This document shows positions 3,197 to 37,097 of a DNA stretch of 64,000 nucleotides, one piece after another. Position 1 is the stretch's first letter. Every line of letters begins with the position of its first letter. The stretch is from an uncultured Coriobacteriaceae bacterium (GTDB lineage: Bacteria > Actinomycetota > Coriobacteriia > Coriobacteriales > Eggerthellaceae), in assembly GCA_902768975.1 (NCBI GenBank), contig CACXMZ010000005.1:248001-312000 (forward strand), in the 5' to 3' direction. The notes under the pieces were generated by a model. The model had not been told where the DNA came from. It saw only the letters and a list, made by a program, of their open reading frames with translations, and did no database searches. A program made the position numbers and the translations under genes.

Positions 3197-4321
3197 CTAA
3201 TTAAAGACGTCGCGAATCTTTTGGAATGGCGTGCGAGCCGAAGCCACGTCTTCACCCATTTCGGCTGCCAAATCTTCGAGAATTTCACGCTCGCGCTTGG
3301 AAAGCTTCTTGGGCACTTCAACGTTTACATGGGTAAACAAGTCGCCGCGTCCTTCGCTCTTAAACTTGGGCATGCCGTGGCCCTTGGTGCGTACCACCTG
3401 GTTGTTTTGGCATCCTTCAGGAATACGGACCTTCACTTTTTCGTTTTCCAAAATGCCGTCGACTTCAATTTCGGCACCCAGGCAGGCCTGGACAATCGAA
3501 ATATTAACGAGGGTATGCAGGTTGTCGCCCTCACGCTGGAAGTAGTCATGCGGACGGATACGGCAGGTAACAATGAGGCTGCCCGCTTCGGCGCCTTGCA
3601 TGCCCGCTTCACCAAAACCAGTCAGGCGAAGCTGCTGACCGTCGCGGATACCCACCGGCACTTCAACCGTCACGCGCTGACGGTCGGGCACACGCCCTTG
3701 GCCTTCGCATTCGGGGCAGGCGTTTTCGATAGTTTCGCCCGTGCCGCCACAATGCGGGCAGGTCGAAGCCGTCTGCATGTCGCCCAGGAAGGTGCGTTGG
3801 ACGGTTACCACGCGGCCGCGGCCATTGCACTCGGGGCAGGTTACGCGCTTGCCGCCTTCGCCCATGCCGGTACCTTCACATTCGGGGCACGGCGCCAGGC
3901 GGTCGTAGACAATTTCCTTCTTACAACCAGCAGCCACTTCTTCCAAGGTCAAGCGCAAACCAACGCCCATGTCGCGGCCTTCACGACGCACAGTGGCACC
4001 CATGCCGCCCATGCCACCAAAGAAACTGCTGAACAAGTCGCCCATGCCAAAGCCGCCGCCAAACAGATCTTCAAAGTCCACGTAGGCAGGGCCGGAGCCG
4101 GCGGCGCCAGGAATGGTGCCGAAGCGGTCGTACTGGGCGCGTTTATTCGGGTCCGAAAGAACGTCGTAGGCTTCGTTGAGCTCCTTGAATTGCTCTTCCG
4201 CATTCGGAGCTTTGTTTACGTCGGGATGAAGCTGGCGCGCCTTGCGGCGGAACGCCTTCTTTATTTCGTCGTCGGTGGCGTTACGTGCCACTCCAAGTAC
4301 TTCATAGAGATCTGCTGCCAT
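3197..4321 (-). CDS. dnaJ: Chaperone DnaJ (Hsp40)
   Basis: This is the co-chaperone that stimulates DnaK ATPase and delivers unfolded clients. All class I domains are present in 374 residues: a J domain with the HPD motif (LHPDVNK), a Gly/Phe-rich linker (FGGGFGMGDLFSSFFGGMGG), four zinc-binding repeats (CPECEGTG, CPECNGRG, CPHCGGTG, CPECEGQG) and the C-terminal substrate domains. It follows hrcA by about 20 bases and should share the CIRCE-controlled transcript. DnaK and GrpE are not in the window, so this is either a second DnaJ (CbpA/DnaJ2-like position) or the only copy set apart from dnaK. Confidence 0.97.
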   Translation of the reverse strand: MAADLYEVLGVARNATDDEIKKAFRRKARQLHPDVNKAPNAEEQFKELNEAYDVLSDPNKRAQYDRFGTIPGAAGSGPAYVDFEDLFGGGFGMGDLFSSFFGGMGGMGATVRREGRDMGVGLRLTLEEVAAGCKKEIVYDRLAPCPECEGTGMGEGGKRVTCPECNGRGRVVTVQRTFLGDMQTASTCPHCGGTGETIENACPECEGQGRVPDRQRVTVEVPVGIRDGQQLRLTGFGEAGMQGAEAGSLIVTCRIRPHDYFQREGDNLHTLVNISIVQACLGAEIEVDGILENEKVKVRIPEGCQNNQVVRTKGHGMPKFKSEGRGDLFTHVNVEVPKKLSKREREILEDLAAEMGEDVASARTPFQKIRDVFN

Positions 4322-29266: not shown

Positions 29267-31045
29267 ATGAGAAAGATAAACGAACAATTTGTTGAAGAAC
29301 GCTATGGGCTGGACGGCAGCCTGCAATTCTTCCGTGCAAACTACCCCGAAACCTTTAACTTTGGCTACGACGTCGTAGACGACATTGCCCAGGCCGAGCC
29401 AAGCCGCCCTGCCCTGCTGTGGTGTAACCCTGAAGGCGAAGAACACCACTTTACTTTCGCCGATATGAAACTATGGTCGGACAAAACCGCGAACGTGCTG
29501 GCAGCCCATGGCATTGGTCGCGGCGACATGGTCATGGTCATTCTGCGCCGCCACTATCAATTCTGGTTTGTGGCCACCGCCCTGCACAAGCTGGGTGCGG
29601 TCATGGTGCCTGCCACCTTCATGCTCAAAGAACACGACCTGGACTATAGGCTGCAAAGTGCTGAAATCAAGGCGGTCATCTGCACCGACGTGGGCTACAT
29701 TGCCGACGTGGTCGACGCTTCTGCCCCCCGTTGCCCAAGCGTGCAAGTAAAGATGCTTGTGGGCGGCGCCGGCGGTGGCACTTGCGAAGACCCTGAAGCC
29801 GCAGGCTTTGGCCCTGCCCTTTCAGGCCCAGACGGCCTGTGCAAGGCGGCTGCCACACGCGAAGGCTGGATCGACTTCAACACCGAACTACTTGCTGCTC
29901 CTGCCGAATTCGAACGCCGCGAAACGAAGGCGGCCGACCCCTTCCTCATGTATTTCAGCAGTGGCACCAGCGGCAACCCCAAAATGGTGCTCCATAACAG
30001 CGGCTATGCCGTGGCGCACACGGTTACTGCCAAGCATTGGCACAACGTGCAGTCCGACGGCGGCGTGCATTTCACCATTGCCGACACGGGCTGGGGCAAG
30101 GCTGTGTGGGGCAAGTACTATGGCCAGTGGCTCATGGAAGCTTGCTGCCTGGCCTACGACTTCGACCGCTTCGACGCGCAGGAAATCTTAGAACTCATAG
30201 GCAAGTACCAAGTGACCACCCTGTGCTGCCCGCCTACCATGTATCGTATGTTTATGGAAGCCGACGTGGACCAGTTCGACCTGGCAAGCTTAGTGCATTG
30301 TTCCACCGCGGGTGAAGCATTGAACCCCGACCTCTTCGACTACTGGAAAGAGCACACGGGCCTTACCATCTACGAAGGCTTTGGCCAGACCGAAACGCCG
30401 CTAACCATCGCTAACCTGGTGGGTTCTACCCCACGCCCTGGGTCCATGGGCAAGCCTTCCCCGCAGTATGAATTACAAATCCAACTGGATGACGGCACCC
30501 CTGCCCGCCCAGGTCAGACGGGTGAAATTTGCATCAAGATGGACGAACACACCCACGGCATCATGATGGAATACTACAAAAACCCCGAAAAGACAGCCGA
30601 GGCCATCCATGACGGTTGGTACCATACGGGCGACACCGCCTGGTACGACGAAGACGGCTATATTTGGTATGTGGGCCGCAACGACGACGTTATTAAGTCG
30701 AGCGGTTACCGCATTGGCCCCTTCGAAATTGAAAGCGTACTGCTTGAACATGCCGCCGTGCGTGAAGTGGCAGTTACTGGCGTACCCGACGAACTGCGCG
30801 GCTATGCCGTGAAGGCCACCATCGTGTTGGCAGAAGGATTTGAAGGAACGCCCGAACTAACCAAGGAACTGCAGACCTATGTGAAGCAGGAAACGGCGCC
30901 TTATAAGTTCCCGCGCATCGTGGACTACGTAGACGAATTGCCTAAGACGGTCAACGGAAAGATTCGCCGTGTGGCCATTCGCAAGGCAGACGAAGAGGCC
31001 GCCCACTTACCGGTTGAACACGACAAGAAAGACGGCTTGGTTTAG
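29267..31045 (+). CDS. AMP-forming acyl-CoA synthetase, paralogue 2
   Basis: This ANL ligase of 592 residues is clearly related to the minus-strand enzyme at 22.6 kb. Motifs are YFSSGTSGNPKMVLHN, YEGFGQTETPLTIAN, SGYRIGPFEIE and the catalytic lysine in LPKTVNGKIRR. A Gly/Ala-rich insert (GGAGGGTCEDPEAAGFGPAL) occurs between residues 163 and 200. The ribosome site is weak. The last 20 codons (ending HDKKDGLV) are duplicated at 37035-37097 on the far side of an AT-rich island, suggesting that the gene's 3' end served as an integration target. Confidence 0.93.
   Translation: MRKINEQFVEERYGLDGSLQFFRANYPETFNFGYDVVDDIAQAEPSRPALLWCNPEGEEHHFTFADMKLWSDKTANVLAAHGIGRGDMVMVILRRHYQFWFVATALHKLGAVMVPATFMLKEHDLDYRLQSAEIKAVICTDVGYIADVVDASAPRCPSVQVKMLVGGAGGGTCEDPEAAGFGPALSGPDGLCKAAATREGWIDFNTELLAAPAEFERRETKAADPFLMYFSSGTSGNPKMVLHNSGYAVAHTVTAKHWHNVQSDGGVHFTIADTGWGKAVWGKYYGQWLMEACCLAYDFDRFDAQEILELIGKYQVTTLCCPPTMYRMFMEADVDQFDLASLVHCSTAGEALNPDLFDYWKEHTGLTIYEGFGQTETPLTIANLVGSTPRPGSMGKPSPQYELQIQLDDGTPARPGQTGEICIKMDEHTHGIMMEYYKNPEKTAEAIHDGWYHTGDTAWYDEDGYIWYVGRNDDVIKSSGYRIGPFEIESVLLEHAAVREVAVTGVPDELRGYAVKATIVLAEGFEGTPELTKELQTYVKQETAPYKFPRIVDYVDELPKTVNGKIRRVAIRKADEEAAHLPVEHDKKDGLV
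30983..31045 (+). repeat. Direct repeat, left copy (candidate attL in acyl-CoA ligase 3' end)
   Basis: This 63-bp stretch encodes the last 20 residues and stop of the acyl-CoA ligase. It is 61/63 identical to 37035-37097. Both differences are synonymous third- or first-base Leu changes (TTA/TTG, TTG/CTG), as expected when an element brings its own copy of a coding attachment site. Confidence 0.8.
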
Positions 31046-31080
31046 CACACTACTAAAAGCTCAATCAGCTATGGTTTCCT

Positions 31081-31111
31081 AAAAACTCTAACGCTTTCGT
31101 TAGAGTTTTTT
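31081..31111. terminator. Terminator after acyl-CoA ligase, probably bidirectional
   Basis: A perfect 13-bp stem, AAAAACTCTAACG / CGTTAGAGTTTTT, around CTTT ends in a T-run on the plus strand and has a matching A-run on the left, so it could also work on the minus strand. It lies 35 bases after the ligase stop. A degenerate copy of its right half recurs near 31135-31155. Confidence 0.88.
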
Positions 31112-31191
31112 GCGTTAACGATTTTGCAAAAAATATAACGCAAACGTTAGGGTTTTCAATTATTTCAGCAAGACCTAATACCAAGATCAAA

Positions 31192-31228
31192 ATTGCGTAA
31201 CGTAACTAAAATCGTTACGTTACGCAAT
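31192..31228. repeat. Perfect 15-bp inverted repeat near island boundary
   Basis: ATTGCGTAACGTAAC (31192-31206) and its exact complement (31214-31228) flank a 7-base loop. No T-run follows. Internal GTAAC direct repeats could make it a protein-binding site. It lies 50 bases beyond the stop codon of the lipoprotein gene and near the left end of the island. Confidence 0.7.
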
Positions 31229-31277
31229 ATCAAACAGCTGGGCGCCTACTGTTGCGCTCGCTTGAAACAACTCAATG

Positions 31278-31865
31278 TTACTCCACTTTAGTAAGCATAA
31301 ATTCGTCGGTGGTGTAGGTCTTAACACCGCTTTTAACTGTTACTTCAAGCTGGGGTGCGGTGGAATAGCTGTCGTTATACACCGCTTTAATCTCAAGGTC
31401 TCTGGCACCCTGAATGTCGGATTCGGGAATGGTCAACTTGAACTTCTTGTTTTCAAGCGTGGTCAGCAAGTCGCTAAACTCCTGGTAGTTATCCCCCGGC
31501 GCCGATTCCACGTCACTCGTTAGGTCGTTGCGCGCATGCCCATGGAAGAGCACCTTTACGTCCACGTGCATCTTGCCCAAGGAATCGATGTCGTGAATAG
31601 TAATCTCGATGGGGTTTTGTTGGGCACCATAGCAGGCGTAGTTGGTGTCCGTCTTGGCAAGCTTTCCCGTCCATGTGCCCACCAGTTCCACATTTGCGTC
31701 AGTTGAATAATCAACCGCACTCGAAACAGCGCCTGAAGAAGCACCCGATGAAGCAGGGCCACTTGCCATACAGCCCGACAAGAACAGCATGAGCAACATT
31801 GTGAAAACTAGCAATGATGTAAGCGAAACATACTGCTTTTTATAATGAAGAAACAATCTGTCCAT
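31278..31865 (-). CDS. Putative lipoprotein, unknown function
   Basis: The 195-residue protein has a type II signal: a hydrophobic stretch and lipobox FLSGC with Cys32, followed by a Ser/Gly/Ala linker. The mature part (GTWTGKLAKTDTNYACYGAQ onward) looks beta-rich and resembles extracellular domains that open with 'GxWxG', but I cannot name a family. No convincing ribosome site is seen. It lies 40 bases downstream of a second, larger lipoprotein on the same strand, so the two may be co-expressed and surface-exposed. Confidence 0.8.
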   Translation of the reverse strand: MDRLFLHYKKQYVSLTSLLVFTMLLMLFLSGCMASGPASSGASSGAVSSAVDYSTDANVELVGTWTGKLAKTDTNYACYGAQQNPIEITIHDIDSLGKMHVDVKVLFHGHARNDLTSDVESAPGDNYQEFSDLLTTLENKKFKLTIPESDIQGARDLEIKAVYNDSYSTAPQLEVTVKSGVKTYTTDEFMLTKVE

Positions 31866-31906
31866 CCTTCGTCATCTCGTCATAGGGAGGTGTAATCAAC
31901 AGCTGG

Positions 31907-33799
31907 CTAGATGCAGAAGCCAGGGACAACACCATACAAATAGTATGCAGTTCCATCTTTAAGAAGGGGTTCACCGTCCCTGTTAACATTCAGGAAACAA
32001 CTCGAGTTGGCCGGATTTGGGGAGCGACCCCACCAGGCGTACGAATCGAGGTTCTCAAAGCCTTTAACAAGAATATTGTTGGAATCATCGGGTTTAACTA
32101 AAGCATCCCTATAAAGCTTGTACTCCATGCCTTCGCTATTAAAAATGTCATCATGTGCTGGCAAAATAAACTTTTCAACATCACCACACAATTCTTTGGA
32201 ACTCGGTAGCCAAATCAGATCGGATGTTGTGGTAACAGAAGATGTACTGCTGGTCTCACCAGTATTGTTGGTCAGTTTGTCAACAGAAACAATAATTGAA
32301 CTAAGATCCGAACTCAGGTCTGCAACAAATGACGAATTGAGCCAGGTACGCATTTCGCTCGCTTCCCAACCACCATTATTGCTAGAACTACTTGAATTCA
32401 TGCCGCGCTCCTCGATGCAGTCTTTAAATATAAAGCTAATTCCAGCTTTGCCCGAACCGTCTGACTTGTCATCATGGTTAAACCCAACAATCTGAACTTG
32501 CGAACTCCAAGAAACATCTTTGGAAAAAACAGTTTTAATTTGGGTGCCATCAAGGGTGCCGTCAGGATTACAAAGGTTGTATTTCTTTGCAACCTCAATA
32601 CCACCCATTTCGTCCCCTGCGGCAGAAATCTCGGCTGAAATAGTTGCAAGTTCCTGCCATGAGTAGTCGTTTACAGATGTCTTAATTGCAACGCTACCGG
32701 CAACATTATTTGATGAGTTCGCCTGGTCCGTTGAAGTCTCTGCAACACTATTTGACACCGTGCTTGCTGAAATGCAAAAGCATGGAGCAATACCTTCAGG
32801 AATGCTAGCATTGTTCCCGTTGGGGGCTGCGCTCCCATTGTGACCCACTTGCTGAAACACGTAACTCTGACTTGGAAGCGGAGAACGCAGCCACCACGAG
32901 CACCCTTCCCCTTCAAAAAGCCTAACAAGACTGCTCCTACTGTCAGGCAGATCTCTATAAAGCTTGTACTGCACACCCTCGCCATTCATAACGTCATTAT
33001 TTGCTTGAAGAGAGCTAGGGTAAAAATCTAAATTACCAAACAGTTCTTGTGTGCTAGGTAGCCAAATCATGTCGGAAGTTGCGGTAATAGAGGAAGTGCT
33101 TTCGGTCTTCCCTGTATTGTTTGTAAGCTTGTCAACAGGGACGATAATCGAACTGAGGTCTGAAGGAAGTTCCGCGACAAAAGATGAATTGAGCCAGGTG
33201 CGCATTTCGCTTGATTCCCAGCCACCTGCGTTAGTATTACCTGAATTCATTGAACGCTCGGCAACACAAGTTTTAAAAGCGAAGCAAATGCCAGCTTTGC
33301 CTGAACCGTCTGACTTGTCGTCATGGTTAAAACCAATAATCTGCACAATCGCTTGCATGCCACTTGCAAGTGTTACATCTTTTAGTTGGGTACCATCCAG
33401 AGTGCCATCGGGGTTGCAAAGGTTGTACTTCTTGGCAACTTCAATGCCGCCCGCTTCGTCCCCTGCGACCGAGATTTCAGCCGAAATCTTAGAAAGCTCT
33501 TCCCAGCTGTAGTCGTTAACAGAAGCCTTAGCACTAACGCCACCGACAGCACTACTTGACGTGCCCGTCTCGCTCGACGAAGCATCAACCGCGCTACTTA
33601 CCGTAGCACTTGCCGACGCCTCCTGCGAAGACGACTGCTCTTCGGCGGAGCTTGTAGGCTGCTCAGCTTGCTGGGGCGAACTAGACGCCCCGCCACCTGA
33701 ACACGCCGCCAACAGCACACCCATAAGTACCGTACACATAGCAACGAGCGCAACACTTATTAATCTTCTCATACTCCCCTTCTCTCCTTTCATTTCCAT
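31907..33799 (-). CDS. Lipoprotein with two tandem DUF6273-like domains
   Basis: The protein has a lipoprotein signal (ISVALVAMCTVLMGVLLAAC, Cys33), a Ser-rich linker, then two homologous domains of about 250 residues, near residues 90-345 and 370-630. Each starts SVNDYSWxEL, contains GGIEVAKKYNLCNPDGTLDG, VGFNHDDKSDGSGKAG-like text, SEMRTWLNSSFVA and SWWLRSP/AWWGRSP, and ends in a PxFCI motif. This matches the DUF6273 surface domain common in gut Coriobacteriia and Firmicutes; its ligand is unknown. An alternative start at 33772 (MRRLIS) is equally plausible. The duplicated domain implies an internal gene duplication. Confidence 0.85.
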   Translation of the reverse strand: MEMKGEKGSMRRLISVALVAMCTVLMGVLLAACSGGGASSSPQQAEQPTSSAEEQSSSQEASASATVSSAVDASSSETGTSSSAVGGVSAKASVNDYSWEELSKISAEISVAGDEAGGIEVAKKYNLCNPDGTLDGTQLKDVTLASGMQAIVQIIGFNHDDKSDGSGKAGICFAFKTCVAERSMNSGNTNAGGWESSEMRTWLNSSFVAELPSDLSSIIVPVDKLTNNTGKTESTSSITATSDMIWLPSTQELFGNLDFYPSSLQANNDVMNGEGVQYKLYRDLPDSRSSLVRLFEGEGCSWWLRSPLPSQSYVFQQVGHNGSAAPNGNNASIPEGIAPCFCISASTVSNSVAETSTDQANSSNNVAGSVAIKTSVNDYSWQELATISAEISAAGDEMGGIEVAKKYNLCNPDGTLDGTQIKTVFSKDVSWSSQVQIVGFNHDDKSDGSGKAGISFIFKDCIEERGMNSSSSSNNGGWEASEMRTWLNSSFVADLSSDLSSIIVSVDKLTNNTGETSSTSSVTTTSDLIWLPSSKELCGDVEKFILPAHDDIFNSEGMEYKLYRDALVKPDDSNNILVKGFENLDSYAWWGRSPNPANSSCFLNVNRDGEPLLKDGTAYYLYGVVPGFCI

Positions 33800-33865
33800 G
33801 CCTTCATCCTTCTTTTTCCCTAACCCTATGGTTAAACAATGCCTTTGCTTAACTACTGTCTATTG

Positions 33866-35068
33866 TCATTCGGACTCCTCTTTAACCTCTTCTGCATTTT
33901 CTTCTGTAGTTGCTCCAATTGCTTCAGCACCAAAGCCCTCGTCATTGCTCTTACGCAATTCCTTATTGATATTCCTCGACTCCGTCATGGGAAAGAAAAC
34001 GTCCTTAAAGGCAATGTCGGAATTACCCTGTTTATCGAAAACACACTCATTGTTAAACCACTGCGCAAAGAAACTAACCAGAATATGAAATGGCATTGAA
34101 TCAAAGAAATTGCGCCGCTGGGTATCTTTCGTACCCATTTCAATAGCGCGGATGCGGCACTTTGCGCAATTAAGAAAACGACTGTAGCGACAGTCCAGAT
34201 AGTCAAGCTGGTTTCTCACATCACATCCAAGCGCGGCACTACAACGTTTTTCACCCAAAGGCTGATAATCGAGATCCAAGTTCTTTTCGACGATGCAAAC
34301 GCAAAGTAGGTATATTTCAATTGCGCGCACATAAAGATTCTTGTTTGGAACCTTAGCAATTGCATTAAGTGATTCTGGAAGTTGTGCGCTTGCAAATGGA
34401 AATAAGCGAGAGCAGAGAGGCTTATAGTTTTCGCTGTTTTTGTTAGTGTCAACCCCGCAATAGGCACAACCATATTCATCGGTATAAAAGAGCGAGAGGG
34501 CTGCACTACTAAGCAAATCTTCAACTCTCTGTTTTGATTCGTAGTACTGACAACTGCATTCGGTTAGATTTTCGTTCTTATTCCGATTAGGATTAATTGT
34601 CTTAGTCGCATATATAAGACGATGTAGCTCCCTTGCCATGTCGCATATATCGCTGAATTCTTTTTTAAAAATTTTTCGAGTTACATACTCACTTCGTTTG
34701 TATTCGTACTCCCGACGAGATTTTCTTCTTGCAATTGAATATGCAATGGGCCATCCCAGAAACAACGTGACAAGCGCCGCGAAAACCGTAGCCATTGCGA
34801 TAGCATTATTGTTCGTTCCATAAATAGCAGATTGGCAGGAATAAGCCATACAAGTTGAAGTATTGGCTGAAAACACTGACGCAAGCCACTCGAAGGTGTC
34901 TGCTATGAAAGGAACAATGCAAAAAATAAAGAGAAGTAAAAGAGCGATTTCAATTAATAACACTAACGAACTGCTAATACGCCAGTACTTGTTAATATGC
35001 GTGCAGAGTGTGTATGCACTTTGCTCAGATTTCTCGTCTGTAGTTCTACAAGTTTTAATCAAAATCAC
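33866..35068 (-). CDS. Unrecognised membrane protein with cysteine pairs
   Basis: The 400-residue frame has two predicted membrane helices (about residues 32-57 and 89-112) and then a long charged cytoplasmic part starting SIARRKSRREYEYKRSEYVT. Cysteine pairs CSC, CAYC and CAKC are spread through residues 165-310 and could bind zinc or a metal cluster. An acidic tail (EENAEEVKEESE) ends the chain. The start is probably GTG at 35068, but the ribosome site is poor. Codon and base use are AT-rich like the rest of the island. I do not recognise the family. Two N-terminal helices plus a large cytoplasmic domain is a layout seen in some defence and signalling proteins, but no function is claimed. 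Confidence 0.7.
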   Translation of the reverse strand: MILIKTCRTTDEKSEQSAYTLCTHINKYWRISSSLVLLIEIALLLLFIFCIVPFIADTFEWLASVFSANTSTCMAYSCQSAIYGTNNNAIAMATVFAALVTLFLGWPIAYSIARRKSRREYEYKRSEYVTRKIFKKEFSDICDMARELHRLIYATKTINPNRNKNENLTECSCQYYESKQRVEDLLSSAALSLFYTDEYGCAYCGVDTNKNSENYKPLCSRLFPFASAQLPESLNAIAKVPNKNLYVRAIEIYLLCVCIVEKNLDLDYQPLGEKRCSAALGCDVRNQLDYLDCRYSRFLNCAKCRIRAIEMGTKDTQRRNFFDSMPFHILVSFFAQWFNNECVFDKQGNSDIAFKDVFFPMTESRNINKELRKSNDEGFGAEAIGATTEENAEEVKEESE

Positions 35069-35147
35069 CCATCGTAGCTACCAACAACATTAGCCCCGAT
35101 GGATTACTTAAATAGTGCGCAACGCAAGATGAAGAGCATCCACCAAG

Positions 35148-35263
35148 GCTGCGAAACCATAGAGAATCCTAAGAAAGAAAACTCCTGAAGGCAGATGCCC
35201 TTCAGCATCCGTTTTCTTTCTTGATGATTCTGGAAGAAACAGAACCCTCTATGGTTTCGCAGC
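35148..35263. other. Nested inverted-repeat structure (possible ncRNA)
   Basis: A perfect 17-bp outer stem (35148-35164 with 35247-35263) encloses three further elements: a perfect 12-bp stem (35171-35182 with 35211-35222), inside it a 7-bp stem CTGAAGG / CCTTCAG with a 7-base loop, and beside it a 5-bp hairpin (35228-35244). It lies in the divergent region between the unknown membrane protein and the DUF3800-like gene. The layout suggests a folded RNA or a single-stranded DNA structure. No loop sequence is shared with the elements at 10.2 or 45.7 kb. Confidence 0.75.
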
Positions 35264-35431
35264 TCCCATTATATATGAAGACACATGAAAGCAATCTGAC
35301 GATTATCAGCGGAAAAGTGGGCGGACAAATACAGTACGGCACAATTAGATACGCTGCTGAAGAAACATAGGTAATTCGACGCACTTTCATGAACTCACTG
35401 TTATAAAATCAAATTATAAAAAGGAGCTTAA

Positions 35432-36022
35432 TTGAACAAGCATTTTGAAAGACAGATAATTGCATGGGGCGACGAAAGCATACGCATTTCTGCACCTGTT
35501 CCAACATATCTTATGGCTGCAACAATTCTTCCAAATGATTGTGACTTGGCCCATCTTGCATCCCTAAAACCAAAAGGTACTATTAAGCTCCATTGGCGCG
35601 AACTCACTGATAAAGTGCGCCTTGAAGCAATAACTGAAATCGCGAAGATTGGTGGCCAAACCACTATAGTTGCTGCTGCGCCTCTACCCAAAAAGAAGCA
35701 GGAACGCGGTCGGCGTAAATGCCTTGAGTTGCTACTGCCAGAACTTGAAAGATTGAATGTTAGTACCCTAGTACTGGAAAGTAGAATGCTTAAACTCAAT
35801 GAGAAAGATATAGAGATGCTTCATGCACTTCGCGTTCAGAATATCGTCTCGAACATTCGTATTGAGCATGCTCATGCTAGCGAACAAGAACAGCTTCTTG
35901 TTCCGGATCAGATTCTTGGTGCATATGGAGACTACTTGAATAGCAACGACGAAAGTGCAAGATGGGGTCAATCATGGGAAACAGTACTTTCGAAACTCAC
36001 AATTATGGAAACAGAAATATAG
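35432..36022 (+). CDS. DUF3800-like protein (putative RNase H-fold)
   Basis: The 196-residue protein starts at TTG with AAGGAG five bases upstream. The opening IIAWGDESIRIS carries a D-E-S motif like the first acidic strand of DUF3800 proteins, and the end LLVPDQILGAYGDYLNSNDE resembles their final 'AD..aGa..' helix with a second Asp. The spacing of the acids fits an RNase H-like active site. DUF3800 proteins are common in phage and defence regions; their activity is mostly unproven. Here the gene stands between two strong hairpin structures. The family assignment is by motif only. Confidence 0.55.
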   Translation: MNKHFERQIIAWGDESIRISAPVPTYLMAATILPNDCDLAHLASLKPKGTIKLHWRELTDKVRLEAITEIAKIGGQTTIVAAAPLPKKKQERGRRKCLELLLPELERLNVSTLVLESRMLKLNEKDIEMLHALRVQNIVSNIRIEHAHASEQEQLLVPDQILGAYGDYLNSNDESARWGQSWETVLSKLTIMETEI

Positions 36023-36025
36023 CGC

Positions 36026-36091
36026 GAGGGCTGGGTCCCGCGATACCGCGGGGACTCCCAGCCCTCACTTCCTAACCTCCCAGCGGGAGGT
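36026..36091 (+). other. Double GC-rich hairpin after DUF3800-like gene
   Basis: GAGGGCTGGG / CCCAGCCCTC (36026-36035 with 36057-36066) encloses CCCGCG / CGCGGG around ATAC. A second hairpin, ACCTCCC-AGC-GGGAGGT, follows at 36075-36091. It starts four bases after the stop codon. It is far more GC-rich than the surrounding AT-rich island. It could be a terminator without a T-run, or a structured RNA. Confidence 0.65.
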
Positions 36092-36472
36092 GGCTTTCAG
36101 GTGAATCATAGCATAATTTCTTATTAAGTTCCAAAGCCATGGATGACCGCGTGGCATTGTACTGCGGTTTTATATAGGGAGGTCTGTATTTTGAGTGCCA
36201 GTAAAACCTTGATAAGAATCGAACAAAACATGGCAATTCTAAGTAGAATTTAGAACGCAAGTTCGTTACGAACAGATGTATGTTAGCATGTCATAAAACA
36301 AGACGCGGCCTACCCCAGTGCTGCAAGACTGAAGCATAGTATTTGATTAAGAATTATCTGAATTAACTAGTCGGTTAAAAACTTGAAGTCAAATTTATAA
36401 CTTCAAGATAAGAGTTTCTTTACAAGAATAGATTTATGTCTTACAATTATGTAAGTCAAAAAGGAGACAACC
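36092..36472. other. Gene-poor AT-rich interval upstream of toxin-antitoxin pair
   Basis: No convincing gene is present. A short frame starting TTG near 36191 behind GGGAGG encodes only about 20 residues (MSASKTLIRIEQNMAILSRI) and may be a gene remnant. Two inverted repeats occur: CTTGAAGT / ACTTCAAG at 36382-36407 and CTTACA / TGTAAG at 36440-36455. The latter is just upstream of the ribosome site, so they are candidate operators for the following pair. Confidence 0.5.
36440..36455 (+). promoter_or_regulatory. Candidate toxin-antitoxin operator
   Basis: CTTACA-ATTA-TGTAAG is a perfect palindrome six bases before the AAGGAG ribosome site of the toxin gene. Type II antitoxins of the ribbon-helix-helix class usually bind such short palindromes to autoregulate. 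Binding here is inferred. Confidence 0.5.
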
Positions 36473-36742
36473 TTGTTTGACGATATCACGGTAAATGCCC
36501 GCATAAAGGAAAGACATCCAGAATTACAAGAAGACGATGTTAAAAGCGCGTGGAACAATGCTGTCAAGTATGCAGAAAGAACTACCGGCAGTATTCCTGG
36601 TCCCCTACTCGTCGCAATAGGCACAGACAGCAAAGGTAGATTACTAGAGATGGTTGGAGTCGCTACATCGGATGCAATTCATATTTTTCATGCAATGACA
36701 CCGCCTTCGAAGAAAACGATTGAAGAATTAGGAATGAAATAA
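36473..36742 (+). CDS. BrnT-like toxin of a type II toxin-antitoxin pair
   Basis: The 89-residue protein starts at TTG with AAGGAG upstream. The end of the protein, GRLLEMVGVATSDAIHIFHA then MTPPSKKTIEELGM, resembles the strand-and-tail region of BrnT-type RelE-fold toxins that cleave RNA. The N-terminal half (ITVNARIKERHPELQEDDVK) matches the 'hxRHxI..eev' start of the actinobacterial subgroup. The antitoxin gene follows two bases later. The toxin-first order is as in brnTA. Confidence 0.75.
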   Translation: MFDDITVNARIKERHPELQEDDVKSAWNNAVKYAERTTGSIPGPLLVAIGTDSKGRLLEMVGVATSDAIHIFHAMTPPSKKTIEELGMK

Positions 36743-36744
36743 CC

Positions 36745-37020
36745 ATGGGGATTACTACAAAAGACGGAACATACATAAGCGATGAACAGCTCGAAGACAT
36801 TGCCCAAATGTTTGAGCGTGGTGAATGGCCCGAAGGCAAAACACATATATTGCGTGGGCGTCCCCTTATTCTTGGCGAGGAATTGCAGTCTGTTACCTAC
36901 AGAGACACAAAACGCAAAGTTGCCGCCATGGACAAACGCGCAAAGACGCTCCATATGAGCAGATCGGACTATTTACGAGACCTTGTAAGCAAAGACCTAG
37001 CATCCGCGGCAACGGTTTAG
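36745..37020 (+). CDS. Ribbon-helix-helix-type antitoxin partner
   Basis: The 91-residue protein has an N-terminal part rich in acidic and aromatic residues (SDEQLEDIAQMFERGEWPEG) typical of a toxin-wrapping segment, then RGRPLILGEELQSVTYRDTK with a predicted ribbon and helix, and a C-terminal MDKRAKTLHMSRSDYLRDLV like CopG/MetJ antitoxins. The GRP-L-G linker is common in actinobacterial antitoxins of this class. Translation is coupled to the toxin. The gene ends 14 bases before the right-hand direct repeat. Confidence 0.75.
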   Translation: MGITTKDGTYISDEQLEDIAQMFERGEWPEGKTHILRGRPLILGEELQSVTYRDTKRKVAAMDKRAKTLHMSRSDYLRDLVSKDLASAATV

Positions 37021-37034
37021 GTCTAAAGGCGCAT

Positions 37035-37097
37035 AAGGCAGACGAAGAGGCCGCCCACTTGCCGGTTGAACACGACAAGAAAGACGGCCTGGTTTAG
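37035..37097 (+). repeat. Direct repeat, right copy (candidate attR, displaced ligase 3' end)
   Basis: This is an orphan copy of the last 20 codons and stop of the acyl-CoA ligase, 61/63 identical to 30983-31045 with only synonymous changes. It has no upstream reading frame of its own. It ends 10 bases before the convergent rsmB stop codon, so the pre-insertion order would have been ligase then rsmB. Confidence 0.8.

What the first reader, a model, noticed from the sequence alone, without database searches (positions are those of the whole stretch)
35100..36100. DUF3800-like gene set between two strong non-coding hairpin structures
A 116-bp nested inverted repeat with a perfect 17-bp outer and 12-bp inner stem lies upstream, and a double GC-rich hairpin lies directly downstream of the gene in an otherwise AT-rich island. 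DUF3800 proteins have an RNase H-like fold by family knowledge. A nuclease-like protein with structured RNA on both sides suggests a protein-RNA pair, such as an RNA-guided or RNA-inhibited effector or a defence system. The system idea is inference.
Basis: partly seen in the sequence, partly recalled or inferred. Interest (0 to 1): 0.68.

Follow-up and report, generated by a model that had tools for sequence, protein, structure and literature searches.

The report
RNase-like gene paired with small RNA
A small nuclease-like gene carried on mobile DNA in many actinobacteria comes with its own small structured RNA, encoded just behind it and usually on the opposite strand, and the RNA sometimes survives without the gene, which suggests an RNA-controlled toxin or defence module.

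Summary
Both hairpins are real. The downstream one matters: it is a ~75-80-nt structured RNA gene on the minus strand, with a conserved -10 box, ending at the stop codon of the nuclease-like gene (35432-36022). A covariance model finds this RNA beside 56 of 57 homologous genes across Actinomycetota (the 57th is cut by a contig end), 52 on the opposite strand, 4 (Bifidobacterium) on the same; 12 of 17 base pairs show two-sided changes. No Rfam family matches over threshold; nearest is PtaRNA1 (sub-threshold, reciprocal). The protein is confidently predicted as an RNase HII-like fold with invariant D14-E15...E116...D159; it does not itself match Pfam DUF3800, though a Clavibacter homologue does. 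In 297 genomes of the order all 11 protein-bearing genomes carry the RNA, while 8 carry only the RNA, one of them a sister species at the same insertion site (97% identical). This fits an RNA-antitoxin/nuclease-toxin module best (about 50%); an RNP defence effector is the main rival. The upstream hairpin is an unrelated genus-level element. The RNA-guided idea lacks any variable guide. Function is untested.

The parts
35432..36022 (+). Nuclease-like gene, 196 aa (TTG start, AGGAG-type ribosome site just upstream); predicted RNase HII-like fold; invariant D14 E15 S16, H54 W55, R94, E116 R118, D159, G163
   Evidence: ORF; alignment A4 of 37 homologues; AlphaFold pLDDT 94.8; Foldseek and VIA-align
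36019..36098 (-). Predicted small RNA gene, about 75-80 nt: hairpin A, GGAAGT linker, 11-pair stem B with apical hairpin, GCGC end that reaches the stop codon of the nuclease gene. Model R1 match 36019-36092; the 5' end near 36098 is inferred from the -10 box
36105..36110 (-). -10 box TATGAT of the small RNA, with TG before it; -35-like TTGGAA at 36129-36134, spacing 18
   Evidence: -10-like box in 42 of 53 loci
36017..36115 (-). 99-bp block (-10 box plus RNA) that alone is present, at 97% identity, at the same chromosomal site in same-genus genome G266, which lacks the nuclease gene
31046..37097 (.). AT-rich genomic island holding the module, inserted behind an AMP-binding enzyme gene and bounded by a 63-bp direct repeat of that gene's 3' end (30983-31045 and 37035-37097)
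35148..35263 (.). Upstream nested inverted repeat; real, but a separate genus-level element and not part of the nuclease-RNA pair

Best explanation
A mobile two-part module: an RNase HII-like nuclease gene and a ~75-80-nt structured RNA transcribed from its own promoter, usually convergent with the gene and ending at its stop codon. SHOWN by computation: the gene-RNA linkage, the RNA structure and its strand, the conserved -10 box, the predicted nuclease fold with invariant acidic residues, and the one-sided dependence (in the order sample no protein-bearing genome lacks the RNA, while the RNA occurs without the gene). INFERRED: the RNA folds into a recognition shape that binds the nuclease and keeps it inactive (RNA antitoxin); loss of the RNA, by plasmid loss, host takeover or RNA turnover, frees the nuclease to cut RNA or RNA-DNA hybrids and stop growth. 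RNA kept alone after loss of the gene would act as an anti-addiction antitoxin. That the pair is a real functional unit: about 0.95. That the RNA is an inhibitor: about 0.5.
For: RNA model R1 finds the RNA in 56 of 57 homologue loci (32 of the 56 not used to build it); the 57th, L062, is cut by a contig end. 52 lie on the opposite strand, 48 of them within 30 nt of the stop codon, median 3 nt. Pairing 96.0%, 12 of 17 pairs with two-sided change, covariation 0.445 against 0.196+-0.016 shuffled and 0.08-0.13 slid. RNA strand: 45 G-U against 6 A-C cells (20 against 6 without one invariant U-G pair), i.e. 96.0% against 86.8% standard pairs. -10-like box in 42 of 53, 15.3 expected, 12 in a downstream control. 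Order sample of 297 genomes: protein in 11, all with RNA; RNA in 19, 8 without protein (Fisher 2e-15, relatedness not corrected). Gene remnants with well-scoring RNA: G196, G218:C45, G253:C16, and one gene with an internal stop, G165:C23. Homologues on 26 plasmid records; RNA beside 7 of 8 examined. RNase HII is the best fold: Z 10.9, E 5e-6.
Against: No toxicity, binding or expression data. The RNA does not form ToxI-like repeats in one operon with the toxin. RNA-only loci could be relics, a free-standing regulator or chance gene loss; one of the 8 (G207) is a weak partial match (27.3 bits). Gene fragments without a listed RNA also exist (G218:C6, G263:C73). In divergent homologues the RNA match is often weak (10.5-23.5 bits), and none was found near G703 (L183) or at the expected place near Clavibacter pCM2 (L169). 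PtaRNA1, the nearest Rfam family, is annotated as an antitoxin of a type I system beside another protein, which would suggest another mechanism, or that the likeness is convergent.
Confidence: 0.5

Rival explanations
1. RNP effector: the RNA is a required cofactor or sensor of the nuclease (defence against phage or plasmids), and the nuclease is switched on through the RNA when foreign nucleic acid or an RNA-degrading event is met.
For: Strict linkage of gene and RNA, mobile context with integrases in several loci and plasmids, RNase HII-like fold; DUF3800 proteins have been reported with putative ncRNAs and beside Cas12a2 (PMC10910872, passages).
Against: RNA without the nuclease in 8 of 19 RNA-bearing genomes, in one at 97% identity; no PADLOC match; no neighbour genes shared beyond close relatives.
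Confidence: 0.25
2. Free-standing regulatory or selfish RNA with a dependent nuclease: the RNA acts on its own targets (as PtaRNA1 is thought to), and the nuclease processes or turns it over.
For: RNA-only loci, several RNA copies per locus in L113, L076, L064, L095, L108, likeness to PtaRNA1, which is found with another protein.
Against: The RNA follows the gene almost without exception when the gene is present, and no shared target or partner was seen at RNA-only loci.
Confidence: 0.15
3. Cis-antisense control: the convergent RNA pairs with the 3' end of the nuclease mRNA and limits its expression.
For: 48 of 52 opposite-strand RNAs end within 30 nt of the stop codon, so an mRNA read past its stop would carry the full complement.
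Against: RNA lies on the same strand in four Bifidobacterium loci and further away in others; strong structural covariation is not needed for antisense pairing.
Confidence: 0.07
4. Transcription terminator or DNA-level hairpin (attachment or recombination site).
For: GC-rich hairpin directly after a stop codon; several loci lie near integrases.
Against: No T-run follows; invariant GGAAGT and GCGC outside the variable stem, own -10 box, strand-specific G-U pairs, orientation flips and gene-less copies.
Confidence: 0.03

Closest known systems
DUF3800-associated RNA motifs (Rfam DUF3800-I RF02969, DUF3800-IX RF02968; series recalled from Weinberg 2017, paper not held)
   Same: Structured RNA next to a DUF3800/RNase H-fold gene
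   Different: None of these families matches this RNA at any threshold used; the opposite strand and gene-less copies are shown here, and whether the known motifs share them was not tested
PtaRNA1 (RF01811), plasmid small RNA annotated as antitoxin
   Same: Hairpin - GGAAGUG - stem - GCGCUU layout; PtaRNA1 model hits the window at 26.9 bits (E 0.0076; best hit of the whole genome), R1 hits true PtaRNA1 at 29.2 bits (E 1.3e-5); mobile plasmid setting
   Different: Below the gathering score of 47; no apical hairpin; neighbours are a 'ptaRNA1 family toxin' and trb genes, no RNase HII-like gene annotated; among nine other homologue loci scanned no PtaRNA1 match at E<=1
Type III toxin-antitoxin systems (ToxIN)
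   Same: Working idea: nuclease held by a structured RNA
   Different: Fold is RNase HII-like, RNA is a single separately promoted unit on the other strand, not tandem repeats in the toxin operon
RNase HII / RNase H2
   Same: Fold (Z 10.9 to 1uax) and the D-E pair on the first strand (motif recalled)
   Different: No sequence-family match to any RNase H family; conserved H54-W55 and QER-RRK stretch seem its own
RNA-guided RuvC/RNase H nucleases with a 3' RNA (TnpB-omegaRNA type, recalled)
   Same: RNase H-superfamily nuclease gene followed by a structured RNA
   Different: No variable guide part, protein 196 aa without other domains, RNA on the opposite strand

Membership tests
Pfam DUF3800 (PF12686) | Profile match at the gathering score | tested here: not met
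   Window protein: 0 families at E<=1; 0 of 37 members of A4 match DUF3800 at E<=1. A distant Clavibacter plasmid homologue does (E 1.5e-4, 22.9 bits, cut-off 21), another only weakly (13.9 bits)
Pfam DUF3800 (PF12686) | RNase H-like fold | tested here: met
   AlphaFold pLDDT 94.8; RNase HII best by Foldseek and VIA-align
RNase HII | Fold | tested here: met
   Z 10.9, 151 residues at 3.2 A to 1uax; the top 24 rows are RNase H2/HII/HIII or complexes that contain one
RNase HII | Sequence-family match | tested here: not met
   No RNase H family among Pfam or NCBIfam matches
RNase HII | Cleavage of RNA-DNA hybrids or single ribonucleotides | not testable with these tools
   Needs biochemistry
Rfam DUF3800-associated RNA motifs | Covariance-model match | tested here: not met
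   No match over gathering score nor among matches up to E 10. A genome search with RF02969 found nothing in 110 genomes and in no control, so it is uninformative
PtaRNA1 (RF01811) | Covariance-model match at the gathering score of 47 bits | tested here: not met
   26.9 bits in the window
PtaRNA1 (RF01811) | Common descent of the two RNAs | tested here: inconclusive
   Reciprocal model hits but no match in nine other homologue loci
PtaRNA1 (RF01811) | Position antisense at the 5' side of a ptaRNA1-family toxin gene | tested here: not met
   In the window the RNA ends at the 3' end of an RNase HII-like gene; layout of true PtaRNA1 loci
Type III toxin-antitoxin | RNA antitoxin of tandem repeats upstream in the toxin operon | tested here: not met
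   Single RNA, other strand, 3' side
Type III toxin-antitoxin | Protein toxin neutralised by direct RNA binding | not testable with these tools
   Needs toxicity and binding assays
RNA-guided nuclease (TnpB type) | Variable guide segment next to a fixed scaffold | tested here: not met
   Copies within one locus show no guide-like variable stretch; conservation runs over the whole RNA. Sequence beyond the RNA was not examined for guides
Intrinsic terminator | Hairpin followed by a T-run | tested here: not met
   No T-run after the hairpin on the gene strand; the scan lists only a 6-pair minus-strand site there

The most novel reading that the evidence does not exclude
A new type of RNA-antitoxin system spread over Actinomycetota: an RNase HII-like toxin held by a separately promoted, structured RNA, with solitary RNAs working as anti-addiction immunity, and with PtaRNA1 of proteobacterial plasmids as a distant cousin of the same RNA superfamily, so that PtaRNA1 would act through structure rather than, or besides, antisense pairing.
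Probability: 0.25. Interest if true: 0.85.

Novelty: new variant of a known kind. Interest (0 to 1): 0.68.

Why it matters
RNAs next to DUF3800 genes are known to Rfam, but I know of no assigned function. Here is a compact pair (a 591-bp gene and an RNA of about 75-80 nt) with a confident protein model, a sharp RNA boundary given by a 99-bp block in a same-genus genome, natural RNA-only loci, and members in named genera such as Bifidobacterium, Curtobacterium, Arthrobacter and Actinomyces and on Streptomyces plasmids. That makes the open question of what such nuclease-RNA pairs do directly testable with small constructs.

Tried and rejected
Both hairpins as one system: rejected; the upstream hairpin has relatives only in the genus (G309 77%, G266 73%, at other places) and upstream folds of homologues are scattered (6 of 46 with z <= -4, no common place).

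RNA as part of the nuclease mRNA (gene strand): rejected by the G-U test and the -10 box.

Guide RNA: compared within-locus copies; no variable stretch.

Shared partner genes: all-against-all comparison of ORFs within 5 kb found none beyond close relatives.

Defence-system match: none in PADLOC; PHROGs none for the nuclease. Phage and viral collections: no homologue.

Solved structures by sequence: nothing meaningful.

Upstream hairpin as a multicopy repeat of this genome: no, single copy. Rfam DUF3800-I genome search: uninformative, nothing rang in controls. E. coli search for PtaRNA1: no match. Paper searches for 'DUF3800', 'ptaRNA1' and variants and RNA-antitoxin terms listed no description of this pair in the held library; only listings were seen except for passages of PMC11701678, PMC10910872, PMC7657543 and PMC3771888. 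Weinberg 2017 was not held and Findeiss 2010 not read, so the series of DUF3800 motifs and the PtaRNA1 biology are recalled, apart from the passages and annotations cited.

Rows dropped: L031 (internal stop) from A1; L064 (wrong frame) between A3 and A4; L075, L100 (duplicates) and L104 (wrong place found by the regex) from A2; L069, L110, L115 (near-duplicates) and L090, L102, L085, L103, L095, L108, L111 (poorly aligning) from A5; all of these RNAs were later scored by R1. In one search, 53 RNAs were tested: the 57 (window and 56 loci, one RNA each) less L061, L075, L087, L100.

Full report
WHAT IS THERE. The window is part of a 1.9-Mb genome; named relatives of the gene that are closest to it carry titles such as Eggerthellaceae or Coriobacteriaceae. 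The finding lies in an AT-rich island (31046-37097) behind an AMP-binding enzyme gene. The island is bounded by a 63-bp direct repeat of that gene's 3' end (30983-31045 and 37035-37097, 97% identical). The same junction is empty in the same-genus genome G306 (76 bp between the two flanking genes) and short in four other genomes of the family (66-151 bp), while G266, G238 and G307 carry other inserts there. No integrase was seen in the island. Its genes are two lipoprotein-like genes, a membrane-protein-like gene, the nuclease-like gene, and a small pair with a VapB-like second gene.

CHECK OF THE OBSERVATION. Both hairpins exist at the stated places and are far more stable than shuffled sequence. 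The gene between them encodes 196 aa and matches no Pfam, PADLOC or PHROG family, and NCBIfam only at noise level. The DUF3800 name is indirect: none of 37 homologues scanned matches PF12686, but a distant plasmid homologue from Clavibacter passes its cut-off.

THE DOWNSTREAM STRUCTURE IS AN RNA GENE. In 57 loci found by protein similarity in named genomes, a covariance model R1 built from 25 RNAs finds the RNA in 56; in the other, L062, the contig ends 81-87 nt behind the match. Of these 56, 24 were used to build the model and 32 were not. Not all are independent (L063/L075 and L099/L100 are near-identical, several Curtobacterium are close). Of the 56, 52 lie on the strand opposite to the gene, 48 of them within 30 nt of the stop codon (median 3), and four, all Bifidobacterium, on the same strand. 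The stem covaries: 12 of 17 pairs have two-sided changes, 96% of cells are paired, covariation 0.445 against 0.196 in shuffles and at most 0.13 when slid. On the gene-opposite strand 45 cells are G-U and 6 A-C, so 96.0% of cells are standard pairs against 86.8% on the gene strand; without the invariant U-G pair it is 20 against 6. A -10-like hexamer lies in the 30 nt before the model start in 42 of 53 RNAs, 40 of them at a distance of 8-13 nt, where shuffles give 15.3 and a downstream control 12. In the window this is TATGAT at 36110-36105 with TTGGAA 18 nt before it. These facts exclude a simple terminator and a gene-strand mRNA element.

INDEPENDENT SETS. Homologues lie on 26 plasmid records (Clavibacter, Streptomyces, Arthrobacter, Rhodococcus, Kocuria and others) and on no phage record. 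I examined 8 of the 26: seven have the RNA on the opposite strand at the 3' side of the gene (24-57 bits), six of them from the annotated stop to about 55 nt behind it and one (L168) inside an annotated C-terminal extension; the eighth (L169) has no match there. In an even sample of 396 genomes of the phylum, 12 carry the protein; the strict genome search found the RNA in 5, four of them protein-bearing (in one, G474, on another contig) and one RNA-only. With filters off on 14 fetched stretches, the best R1 match of nine loci (L176-L181, L184, L186, L187) lies 37-84 nt behind the protein core on the opposite strand, though five score only 10-17 bits; in L182 the second-best match lies there; near G703 (L183) there is none, and L188 holds only an N-terminal piece at a contig end.

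ONE-SIDED DEPENDENCE. In 297 genomes of the order, 11 carry the protein (with the single sequence, with the profile) and all 11 carry the RNA; 19 carry the RNA, so 8 have RNA only (G266, G167, G260, G268, G280, G108, G289, and G207 with a weak partial match). Fisher's test gives 2e-15, without correction for relatedness. Remnants of the gene beside a well-scoring RNA occur in G196, G218:C45 and G253:C16, and a gene with an internal stop in G165:C23. Against this, fragments without a listed RNA occur in G218:C6 and G263:C73. In the same-genus genome G266 the same chromosomal site holds other genes, no nuclease gene, and one block of 99 bp that is 97% identical to window 36017-36115, i.e. the -10 box and the RNA and nothing more; the flanking genes are 87% and 80% identical. 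The RNA is thus kept, or was gained, alone. RNA copies in tandem or on both sides of the gene (L113 three; L076, L064, L095, L108 two each) show no guide-like variable segment.

THE PROTEIN. The AlphaFold model has mean pLDDT 94.8. Foldseek puts archaeal RNase HII first (E 5e-6); in VIA-align the top 24 rows are RNase H2/HII/HIII or complexes that contain one, with Z 8.4-10.9, above Argonaute and integrase cores near 7. Invariant D14 and E15 on the first strand, E116 at a later strand end and D159 on a helix resemble the RNase HII active site (assignment by recall and inference). H54-W55 and the QER-RRK stretch are conserved in the family and could serve RNA binding (inference).

HOW IT PROBABLY WORKS. 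The presence of the RNA with the gene, its survival without the gene, the mobile setting (plasmids, integrase-bearing neighbourhoods) and a predicted nuclease fold fit an RNA antitoxin that holds a toxic nuclease (about 0.5). A ribonucleoprotein defence effector that needs its RNA (about 0.25) or a free regulatory RNA with a dependent nuclease (about 0.15) are not excluded. No expression, toxicity or binding was measured.

RELATION TO KNOWN SYSTEMS. Rfam lists DUF3800-I and DUF3800-IX RNAs (PMC11701678, passages seen), and a Science paper reports DUF3800 as an RNase H fold that has been found with putative ncRNAs and occurs beside Cas12a2 (PMC10910872, passages seen). No Rfam DUF3800 model matches here. 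The nearest Rfam family is PtaRNA1: 26.9 bits in the window, best hit of the genome; the reverse test, R1 against true PtaRNA1 on three IncP plasmids, gives 29.2 bits. Both share hairpin, GGAAGUG, stem, GCGCU. PtaRNA1 neighbours are an annotated ptaRNA1-family toxin and trb genes, and nine other homologue loci gave no PtaRNA1 match at E<=1, so common descent is open.

THE UPSTREAM HAIRPIN. It has relatives at other loci in two same-genus genomes (77% and 73%), in one of them directly upstream of a lipoprotein gene that resembles the one in this island (judged by eye), with changes on both arms that keep some pairs. It is a separate element.

VERDICT. New variant of a known kind (DUF3800-type gene with RNA), function open but now sharply testable.

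Noticed in passing
window 30983-31045 and 37035-37097: 63-bp direct repeat of the 3' end of the AMP-binding enzyme gene bounds the 6-kb island; same-genus G306 has the empty junction, G266 another insert at the same place. Looks like a site-specific insertion behind a gene end, but no integrase is present.
   Followed up: partly
window 35148-35263; L173 1501-1629; L174 1501-1619: The upstream nested hairpin has relatives of 73-77% identity at other loci in two same-genus genomes, with a nearly invariant inner CTGAAGGCAGATGCCC core and some two-sided changes in the outer arms; a small structured or MITE-like element of the genus.
   Followed up: partly
window 36473-37020: Two-gene pair (89 and 91 aa) in the same island; the second resembles a VapB antitoxin (NCBIfam E 7.7e-5, below cut-off). 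Possible second toxin-antitoxin pair.
   Followed up: no
window 31046-31165 and L051 just behind the same gene: About 120 bp directly behind the AMP-binding gene, with a terminator-like hairpin, is shared by the window and G266 although the inserts behind it differ; possible element end.
   Followed up: no
L170, L171, L172 around 3970-4041: Genuine PtaRNA1 genes on IncP plasmids are hit by the actinobacterial RNA model (29.2 bits); the two RNAs may belong to one superfamily.
   Followed up: partly
L149 4009-5379, L038 7326-8636 (G196:C86), L158 3990-5441: Solo or remnant-linked RNAs in G266, G196 and G165:C31 lie near AAA-type ATPase genes (judged by eye from the sequence); this may be chance.
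   Followed up: no
window 31907-33799: 630-aa lipoprotein with two DUF6273 stretches and an internal duplication of about 850 bp spacing at DNA level (77-80% identical blocks).
   Followed up: no
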